Origin: an uncultured Solirubrobacteraceae bacterium
GTDB lineage: Bacteria; Actinomycetota; Thermoleophilia; Solirubrobacterales; Solirubrobacteraceae
Reading direction: 5' to 3'
Length of the DNA stretch: 42,965 nucleotides
NCBI GenBank assembly: GCA_902806175.1
Contig: CADCVQ010000171.1
Location: 1-42,965, forward strand
Positions 30,358 through 32,069 of the stretch are shown piece by piece. The position numbers and the translations under genes are program-made. Positions within the stretch are counted from its first letter, which is position 1. Every line of letters starts with the position of its first letter. The notes under the pieces were generated by a model. It worked only from the letters and a program-made list of their open reading frames with translations. It was not told the origin of the DNA and made no database searches.

Positions 30358-30492
30358 TCAGACGGTGAGCTTCTTGCGGCCCTTGGCGCGGCGGCGCTTG
30401 AGCACCGCGCGGCCGGCCTTGGTCTGCATCCGCTCCCGGAAGCCGTGCGTGCGTGCGCGCTTGCGCTTCTTGGGCTGATAGGTGCGCTTCAC
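30358..30492 (-). CDS. rpmH: Ribosomal protein L34
   Basis: 44 residues from a GTG: starts [17 protein letters not shown], with [18 protein letters not shown] and RKKLTV at the end, the standard L34 sequence. Its start is 240 bp from the first canonical dnaA codon, so it marks the left side of the origin gap. TAGCAT on the minus strand, about 10 nt before the GTG, is a candidate -10 box. Confidence 0.97.
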
Positions 30493-30601
30493 GAGAGCGC
30501 CGATGCTAGCGCACGATCACCTCCCCGACCCGCCTGGGAGGTTTTTCCCGCGACGAGCGGGCTCCCTTCACAAGCGCTCCGGAGCGGCGCCGGGGCATTG
30601 C

Positions 30602-30607
30602 TATATT
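30602..30607 (+). promoter_or_regulatory. Candidate dnaA -10 box within an inverted repeat
   Basis: TATATT is one of the best -10 hexamers in the window. The 8-bp inverted repeat (30589-30596 with 30615-30622) brackets it, so a regulator or a folded DNA form could cover the promoter. A start near 30614 would give a leader of about 58 nt to the AUC at 30672. No -35 is evident. Confidence 0.5.
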
Positions 30608-30661
30608 CGCCGCCGCCCCGGCTGTCTCGCGGGGTCCTCGCTCAGTCGCCGCAGCCCCTCC

Positions 30662-30668
30662 GGAGGAG
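30662..30668 (+). promoter_or_regulatory. Strong ribosome site GGAGGAG before a non-canonical dnaA start
   Basis: GGAGGAG lies 3-5 nt before an in-frame ATC (30672) and about 8 nt before an in-frame ACG (30675). No ATG, GTG or TTG occurs in the dnaA frame between about 30540 and 30732. The site is far from the TTG at 30732 (63 nt), so it suggests initiation at the ATC or ACG. Confidence 0.5.
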
Positions 30669-30731
30669 TCGATCACGCCTGCCGTACCCCCGCAGACCGG
30701 AAGCTTCCCCGATGACCTTGCCCGTGACTGG

Positions 30732-32069
30732 TTGCTGATCCGCGCGCGGCTGCGTGAGGCGGTGCCGGACTCCATCTTCGAGCTCTGGCTCGCCGCCCTG
30801 AAGCCACGCGCGCTCATCGGCGACACCCTCGTGATCACCGCGCCCGACGAGATCCGCACCTGGCTCGCCGACCGCTGCGGCGACCTGCTGCAGGCCTGTG
30901 CGGCGAGCGTGCTCGGACCGCAGACGCAGATCGAGATCGCGGCGCCCGGAGCGGCGCTCGACGACCGTCCCTGCGCCACCGCCCTCGCGACGACGCCGAC
31001 GGGCGACGACGACGCCGAGCTGCACCCGAAGTTCACGTTTGACCAGTTCGTCATCGGCGACTGCAACCGCTTCGCCCACGCCGCGGCGCTGTCCGTCGCC
31101 GAGCTGCCCGGCCAGGCCTACAACCCGCTCTTCCTCTATGGCCCGCCGGGCATGGGCAAGACCCACCTGTTGCACGCGATCGGCAACTACGTCCGCACGC
31201 ACGGCGGCGGGCTGCGCGTGCGCTCGACGACCGCCGAGCGCTTCACGAACGCCTTTGTCGCCGCCGTCCAGACGAAGGGCACCGAGGACTTCAAGGCGCA
31301 CTTTCGCGAGACCGACGTGCTGCTGATCGACGACGTCCAGTTCCTACAGCGCAAGGTGAAGACCGAGGAGGAGTTCTTTCACACGTTCAACGCGCTGCAC
31401 GAGACCGGCAGCCAGCTCGTCCTGACCTGCGACCGCCTGCCGGCCGACATGGCCGCGCTCGAGGAGCGCCTGCTCGAGCGCTTTCAGGCCGGCCTCGTCG
31501 CCGAGCTTGCGCCGCCGGACTTCGCGACCCGCCTGGCGATCCTGCGCAAACGCGTCCAACACGACTGCATCGACCTGCCCGACGAGGCTGCGCTGCACGC
31601 GATCGCGCACCGCATCACGGCCAACGCGCGCACGCTGGAGGGCGCGCTGATCCGCGTCGTCGCCTTCCATTCGCTCACGGGCCGATCGATCGACGCAGCG
31701 CTCGCCGAAAAGGTGCTCGCGGGGCTCTATCCGGCGCCCAAGGTGGTCGGCCGGCGCGAGCCGCCGACGATCGATCGCATCCAGGAGCTTGTCTGCGCCG
31801 CCTTCGAGGTCACCCGCGAGGAGCTCCTTTCCGCCACGCGGACCAGTCGCGTGGCCTGGCCGCGGCAGCTCGCGATGTACCTCGCGCGACAGCACACCGG
31901 CGCGAGCCTGCCCGCGATCGGCGAGCACTTCGGCGGGCGCAATCACACGACCGTCCTGTACGCCTGCCGCAAGGCCGCCCAGCGGCTCGCCGCCGATCCC
32001 ACTGCACAGGCACGTGTGCAGGATCTCGAGCGGCGCCTCATGCAGCCTCCTGACGACCGCAGCAGTTGA
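30732..32069 (+). CDS. dnaA: Chromosomal replication initiator DnaA
   Basis: 445 residues from the first canonical codon, a TTG at 30732. Domain I is cut: its conserved Trp is the codon just before (W in ARDWLLIRARL). The frame is open further upstream, and a ribosome site precedes an ATC at 30672, so the true start is probably there (see findings). AAA+ domain III has Walker A GPPGMGKTHLL (from G137), Walker B LLIDDVQFL and the arginine-finger region ERLLERFQAGL. Domain IV has the DnaA signature GGRNHTTVLYACRKAAQR. Domain II is short (about 30 residues, PGAALDDRPCATALATTP). It binds DnaA boxes and unwinds the origin. Confidence 0.95.
   Translation: MLIRARLREAVPDSIFELWLAALKPRALIGDTLVITAPDEIRTWLADRCGDLLQACAASVLGPQTQIEIAAPGAALDDRPCATALATTPTGDDDAELHPKFTFDQFVIGDCNRFAHAAALSVAELPGQAYNPLFLYGPPGMGKTHLLHAIGNYVRTHGGGLRVRSTTAERFTNAFVAAVQTKGTEDFKAHFRETDVLLIDDVQFLQRKVKTEEEFFHTFNALHETGSQLVLTCDRLPADMAALEERLLERFQAGLVAELAPPDFATRLAILRKRVQHDCIDLPDEAALHAIAHRITANARTLEGALIRVVAFHSLTGRSIDAALAEKVLAGLYPAPKVVGRREPPTIDRIQELVCAAFEVTREELLSATRTSRVAWPRQLAMYLARQHTGASLPAIGEHFGGRNHTTVLYACRKAAQRLAADPTAQARVQDLERRLMQPPDDRSS

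What the first reader, a model, noticed from the sequence alone, without database searches (positions are those of the whole stretch)
30540..30735. dnaA without a canonical start; AUC or ACG initiation suspected
Seen: the dnaA frame is open upstream of the TTG at 30732 with no ATG, GTG or TTG back to about 30540. Starting at TTG would remove the conserved domain I Trp, encoded just before it. A GGAGGAG ribosome site precedes an in-frame ATC at 30672 and ACG at 30675. Known: infC uses AUU for autoregulation by IF3. Inference: rare AUC/ACG start on dnaA that lowers or regulates initiator synthesis.
Basis: partly seen in the sequence, partly recalled or inferred. Interest (0 to 1): 0.6.

Follow-up and report, generated by a model that had tools for sequence, protein, structure and literature searches.

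The report
Replication gene dnaA with ACG start
In this soil-type actinobacterium and several relatives, the gene for the essential replication starter DnaA has no normal start codon and appears to begin at ACG (or possibly ATC), a rare, weak start that would keep this protein scarce.

Summary
In detail: the dnaA frame (open from 30510) has no ATG, GTG or TTG before the domain I Trp codon (30729-30731), and the first, TTG 30732, would cut that Trp off. It is not a base error. Relatives from independent assemblies share it: three more species of the genus, all three species of a second genus (g11), and two species of a third genus (g39) in another family. In these nine species an in-frame ACG lies 3-6 nt behind a GGAG/AGGAGG ribosome site, while the codon before it varies (ATC, ACC, CCC, GTC). 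Only 6 of 73 canonical-start relatives have ACG there. In g11, codon-type conservation spans ACG onward and is absent upstream of the ribosome site. In L025 the next canonical codon is 175 codons past the Trp. I favour ACG 30675 over ATC 30672, though ATC replaces an ATG found there in two basal genus members. One more lineage (g43) probably starts at ATT. Precedents are infC (ATT/ATC) and Streptomyces sigR (GTC); I found no described bacterial dnaA with such a start. The regulatory purpose (low, perhaps IF3-controlled DnaA synthesis) is plausible but untested.

The parts
30602..30607 (+). probable -10 element TATATT (extended TTGCTATATT) of the dnaA promoter; implies a leader of roughly 60 nt
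   Evidence: Motif TG-N-TATATTCGCC recurs at similar distance in genus relatives; the generic consensus scan found no two-hexamer promoter, so inferred only.
30662..30668 (+). ribosome-binding site GGAGGAG
   Evidence: Sequence; AAGGAG/GGAG conserved at the same distance from the domain I Trp across the family.
30672..30674 (+). ATC codon: alternative start candidate, at the place of ATG in L049 and L050
   Evidence: Alignment of genus; not conserved in L048 (ACC) or g11 (CCC).
30675..30677 (+). ACG codon: favoured start codon of dnaA
   Evidence: Invariant in all nine dnaA genes of three genera lacking a canonical start behind the ribosome site.
30675..32069 (+). dnaA coding sequence (replication initiator), about 464 codons if started at ACG
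   Evidence: Pfam Bac_DnaA and Bac_DnaA_C; 67-80% identical proteins in genus.
30699..30722 (+). 24-nt in-frame insertion (8 codons, approximate borders) between start and domain I Trp, unique to this species
   Evidence: Codon comparison with L046; a multiple of three, flanked by synonymous differences.
30729..30731 (+). conserved domain I Trp codon
   Evidence: Present at the expected place in nearly all relatives.
30732..30734 (+). TTG, first canonical codon in frame; not conserved (GCG, ACG, TCG in relatives), so unlikely start
30358..30492 (-). divergent rpmH (ribosomal protein L34), ordinary GTG start: marks the usual rpmH-dnaA junction

Best explanation
dnaA is translated from an ACG codon (30675) placed by the strong ribosome site GGAGGAG (30662-30668) and read by the ordinary initiator tRNA as fMet. 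The weak codon-anticodon pairing makes initiation slow and probably sensitive to IF3, which keeps DnaA synthesis low per mRNA. Shown: no canonical codon; the N-terminal stretch and domain I are coding; ACG is the shared codon in three genera; a ribosome site is present. Inferred: that ACG rather than ATC is the start; that translation is reduced; that IF3 or growth state controls it.
For: Nine dnaA genes in three genera (g1: window, L047, L048, L051; g11: L022, L025, L192; g39: L290, L291) have no canonical start between the ribosome site and the domain I Trp. All have in-frame ACG 3-6 nt after GGAG/AGGAGG, while the preceding codon varies (ATC, ACC, CCC, GTC). Among 73 canonical-start relatives with GGAG only 6 have ACG there, and 5 of those 6 are in g1 or g22. 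In g11, variable sites by codon position are 0/11, 0/11, 4/11 from ACG to the Trp but 17/26, 13/26, 12/25 upstream of the ribosome site, so translation begins near ACG. In L025 the next canonical codon is 175 codons past the Trp. In L291 an in-frame TGA lies 15 nt before ACG and the next canonical codon is past the Trp. Codon differences in domain I are strongly enriched for synonymous ones in frame compared with the other frames. The initiator tRNA has CAU and the GGG/CCC stem, so an ordinary initiator is available. The leader fold is weaker than its shuffles, consistent with an open ribosome site.
Against: ACG is not among the usual list of natural rare bacterial starts (GUG, UUG, CUG, AUU, AUC, AUA; as listed in PMC6397469), whereas AUC is. 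In g1 ATC sits where two basal members have ATG. g1 and g11 may have inherited ACG from a common ancestor without it being a start. L046 has ATC, ACG and also a GTG four codons on (three after ACG). No proteomic, ribosome-profiling or reporter data exist, and all g1 genomes appear to be metagenome bins.
Confidence: 0.6

Rival explanations
1. Translation starts at ATC (30672), the AUC codon, by single-base replacement of an ancestral ATG at that very place; ACG is simply the second codon.
For: L049 and L050, basal in the dnaA tree of the genus, have ATG exactly there. Four of the five crown species keep ATC, L046 among them. AUC starts are established: infC in Streptomyces (PMC5472188) and rnhC in Listeria (PMC13068326).
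Against: L048 has ACC and g11 has CCC at this place, so these would need another start; ACG serves all of them. The spacing from GGAG (3 nt) is short, although L049 uses it with ATG. When ATG is present at this place ACG is absent (2 of 2).
Confidence: 0.26
2. Both ATC and ACG (or further weak codons) are used by the same ribosome site, giving a mixed N-terminus.
For: The two codons are adjacent and in frame, both within reach of the ribosome site.
Against: No direct evidence; L048, g11 and g39 have only ACG as a near-cognate behind the site, apart from AGG inside it.
Confidence: 0.07
3. Translation starts at TTG (30732), giving a shortened DnaA without the first part of domain I.
For: It is the first canonical codon in the frame and would be chosen by annotation software.
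Against: The TTG is unique to this species (GCG in its nearest relatives). Codons before it differ from L046 mainly by synonymous changes (GTA/GTG, CAG/CAA, CTT/CTC, CGT/CGC), plus an in-frame 24-nt insertion. It has no ribosome site and would remove the conserved Trp. Relatives with the same lack have no such TTG.
Confidence: 0.04
4. A sequencing or assembly error removed an ordinary ATG or GTG.
For: The genome is a 183-contig assembly; ATC differs from ATG by one base.
Against: The same lack is seen in eight other species from independent assemblies, with conserved context, including a one-contig genome (L192).
Confidence: 0.03

Closest known systems
infC (IF3) with AUU start in E. coli, AUC in Streptomyces
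   Same: Essential gene whose rare start codon limits translation; AUC is one of the two candidates here (PMC5472188).
   Different: There the product is IF3 itself, closing a feedback loop. Here the product is the replication initiator, and infC in this genus has ordinary GTG/ATG starts.
Streptomyces sigR with GTC start, repressed by IF3
   Same: Actinobacterial regulator with an odd start behind a very strong ribosome site; changing it to a canonical codon overproduces the protein (PMC5472188).
   Different: Another gene and codon; IF3 dependence is proven there and untested here.
E. coli dnaA with GUG start and weak ribosome site
   Same: dnaA translation is kept very low, about one protein per mRNA, partly through the start codon; GUG to AUG raises DnaA (PMC5835720).
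   Different: GUG is a canonical alternative start; here the codon is outside ATG/GTG/TTG and the ribosome site is strong.
Caulobacter dnaA leader with a CUG upstream of the AUG
   Same: A non-canonical codon on dnaA mRNA can bind the initiation complex in vitro (PMC8443254).
   Different: That CUG is not used in vivo and an AUG exists; here no canonical codon exists.

Membership tests
DnaA (bacterial replication initiator) | AAA+ domain plus C-terminal DnaA-box-binding helix-turn-helix | tested here: met
   PF00308 5.5e-64 and PF08299 1e-28.
DnaA (bacterial replication initiator) | N-terminal domain I with conserved Trp, encoded and under coding constraint | tested here: met
   DnaA_N match (E 0.00017, just below the curated cut-off) begins at the Trp; in-frame synonymous excess in domain I.
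genes with non-canonical bacterial start codons (infC, sigR, pcnB type) | no ATG/GTG/TTG at the conserved N-terminus, shared by relatives | tested here: met
   Nine species of three genera, plus an ATT case (L292).
genes with non-canonical bacterial start codons (infC, sigR, pcnB type) | good ribosome site at workable spacing | tested here: met
   GGAGGAG, 3-6 nt before the candidates.
genes with non-canonical bacterial start codons (infC, sigR, pcnB type) | start site mapped experimentally | not testable with these tools
   Needs N-terminal proteomics, ribosome profiling or toeprinting.
genes with non-canonical bacterial start codons (infC, sigR, pcnB type) | translation lowered and repressed by IF3 | not testable with these tools
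   Needs reporters and IF3 mutants or overexpression.
genes with non-canonical bacterial start codons (infC, sigR, pcnB type) | ordinary initiator tRNA | tested here: met
   Initiator-type tRNA with CAU anticodon and GGG/CCC stem in the genome.

The most novel reading that the evidence does not exclude
ACG is a genuine, conserved start codon of an essential bacterial gene, adopted in at least two separate lineages of Solirubrobacterales (with ATT in another) as a built-in device that keeps DnaA synthesis low and couples replication initiation to IF3 or the state of the translation machinery.
Probability: 0.35. Interest if true: 0.75.

Novelty: new variant of a known kind. Interest (0 to 1): 0.6.

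Why it matters
Rare start codons that limit translation are known for a handful of bacterial genes. A repeated, conserved case on the master replication initiator would link the fidelity of translation initiation directly to when chromosomes replicate. It would also add ACG to the natural start codons of bacteria, and it means annotation software must truncate or misplace dnaA in these genomes.

Tried and rejected
1) A hairpin hiding the ribosome site (CTCC-loop-GGAG) seemed visible by eye across the family. Pairing of the GGAG core was 0.69 against 0.66 in sequences with the upstream part shuffled, higher in only 51 of 103, so not supported as a general feature. The window's own leader folds less well than its shuffles. 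2) A start further upstream: codon-position variability upstream of the ribosome site shows no coding pattern in g1 or g11, and stops lie close upstream in L025 (34 codons before the Trp) and L291. 3) Altered initiator tRNA: ordinary. 4) infC of the genus using a rare start as well: no, GTG/ATG. 5) L284/L293 first looked like another case but has an ATG further upstream. 6) A DnaA-box-like pattern TTNTNCACA: none in the window. 7) The general search for published ACG starts in bacterial genes found none in the held library; that library lacks most subscription papers, and the 64-codon E. coli study was not held.

Full report
What is there. The window belongs to a 183-contig assembly of 4.1 Mb whose named relatives are Solirubrobacteraceae metagenome bins. 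dnaA lies divergent from rpmH (30358-30492, minus strand) and is followed by dnaN, as usual (dnaN read by eye from the sequence). Its frame is open from 30510, but the first ATG/GTG/TTG is TTG 30732, directly after the domain I Trp. A GGAGGAG ribosome site (30662-30668) precedes in-frame ATC (30672) and ACG (30675).

Relatives. In the genus (seven genomes) the codons after the ribosome site AAGGAG-TCG are: window ATC ACG CCT GCC GTA; L046 ATC ACG CCT GCC GTG; L047 ATC ACG CCT GCC GTA; L051 ATC ACG CCT GCC CCG; L048 ACC ACG CCT GCT CCG; L049 ATG ACC CCC; L050 ATG CCG CCT GCC GTA. Four of seven therefore have no canonical start between the ribosome site and the Trp; two have ATG in place of ATC, and one has a GTG three codons after ACG. 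L051 has a TTG in frame upstream of the ribosome site, without a recognisable site of its own. In the wider family the usual start is GTG eight or nine codons before the Trp, or TTG twelve before it.

Second genus. All three species of genus g11 (L022, L025, L192) also lack a canonical start there: CCGGAG-TCN-CCC-ACG-CCT-GCY-CAC. In L025 the next canonical in-frame codon is 175 codons after the Trp, inside the ATPase domain, so a non-canonical start is effectively forced. Variable sites by codon position from ACG to the Trp are 0/11, 0/11, 4/11, against 17/26, 13/26, 12/25 upstream of the ribosome site. Coding constraint therefore covers the stretch from ACG and not the leader.

Third genus, another family. 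Both species of g39 (L290, L291) have AGGAGG-NNC-ACG-GTT (GTC ACG and ACC ACG). In L291 an in-frame TGA ends 15 nt before the ACG, and the first canonical codon is beyond the Trp. L290 has a GTG far upstream, in the promoter region, without a ribosome site. A single species of g43 (L292) has AGGAGG-TCAGAG-ATT and no canonical codon before the Trp, a probable AUU start.

Which codon. ACG is the only near-cognate codon shared by all nine genes of the three genera; the codon before it is ATC, ACC, CCC or GTC. Of 73 family members with a canonical start and a GGAG, 6 have in-frame ACG 3-8 nt after it, and 5 of those are in g1 or g22. The species are not independent: g1 and g11 may share ancestry (the dnaA tree leaves this open), so the effective number of events is two or three. 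For the window itself ATC remains a serious rival, because ATG occupied that place in the two basal members of the genus and AUC starts are documented elsewhere.

Is domain I translated? Yes by comparison. Differing codons in the 66 codons after the Trp are synonymous more often in the dnaA frame than in the other two frames in every pair of species tested. Before the Trp, window and L046 differ by synonymous changes (GTA/GTG, CAG/CAA, CTT/CTC, CGT/CGC) and an in-frame 24-nt insertion. The TTG at 30732 is private to this species, so a start there is unlikely.

Machinery. The genome has an ordinary initiator tRNA (CAU, GGG/CCC stem), and infC in the genus has GTG or ATG. The 16S and other initiation factors were not examined. 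The leader is less structured than its shuffles.

Mechanism (inference). A strong ribosome site recruits the 30S subunit, and weak pairing of the initiator tRNA with ACG (or AUC) makes productive initiation rare and likely IF3-sensitive, as shown for sigR (PMC5472188). This fits what dnaA needs: in E. coli it is translated about once per mRNA, with a GUG start contributing, and GUG->AUG raises DnaA (PMC5835720). Mutational switches to such starts are very rare genome-wide (2 to CUG and 1 to AUU among 61,358 ancestral AUG starts; PMC5622118), so several fixed cases on one gene in one order suggest selection. That last step is untested.

Verdict. A real, conserved non-canonical start of dnaA, most likely ACG. 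A new variant of a known kind; the regulatory role is unproven.

Noticed in passing
L292 (genus g43), in-frame ATT behind AGGAGGTCAGAG: Another dnaA of the order without canonical start before the Trp, here probably AUU, the codon used by E. coli infC.
   Followed up: partly
family-wide dnaA leaders, e.g. L026, L061, L032: In many relatives the conserved AAGGAG ends about 15 nt before the GTG start (GGAG ends 39-40 nt before the Trp codon in 54 of 103), much longer than normal spacing; the ribosome site stays fixed while the start codon moves between 12 and 8 codons before the Trp.
   Followed up: partly
G000 contigs C70:180-683 and C179:11700-12203 (L194, L199): Two infC (IF3) genes in this assembly where genus relatives show one; one lies at a contig end, so it may be a paralogue or a contaminating contig.
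   Followed up: no
L192 (one-contig 5.06 Mb genome, genus g11): dnaA is split between two frames in this assembly, suggesting a frameshift (possibly a sequencing indel) in the ATPase domain.
   Followed up: no
L244, L245, L258-L269 (family f3, genus g45 and others): dnaA start GTG sits just after a CGCTATGGTCGCC motif that resembles a -10 element, as if the mRNA were leaderless.
   Followed up: no
window 30699-30722: An 8-codon in-frame insertion in the DnaA N-terminus found only in this species of the genus.
   Followed up: partly
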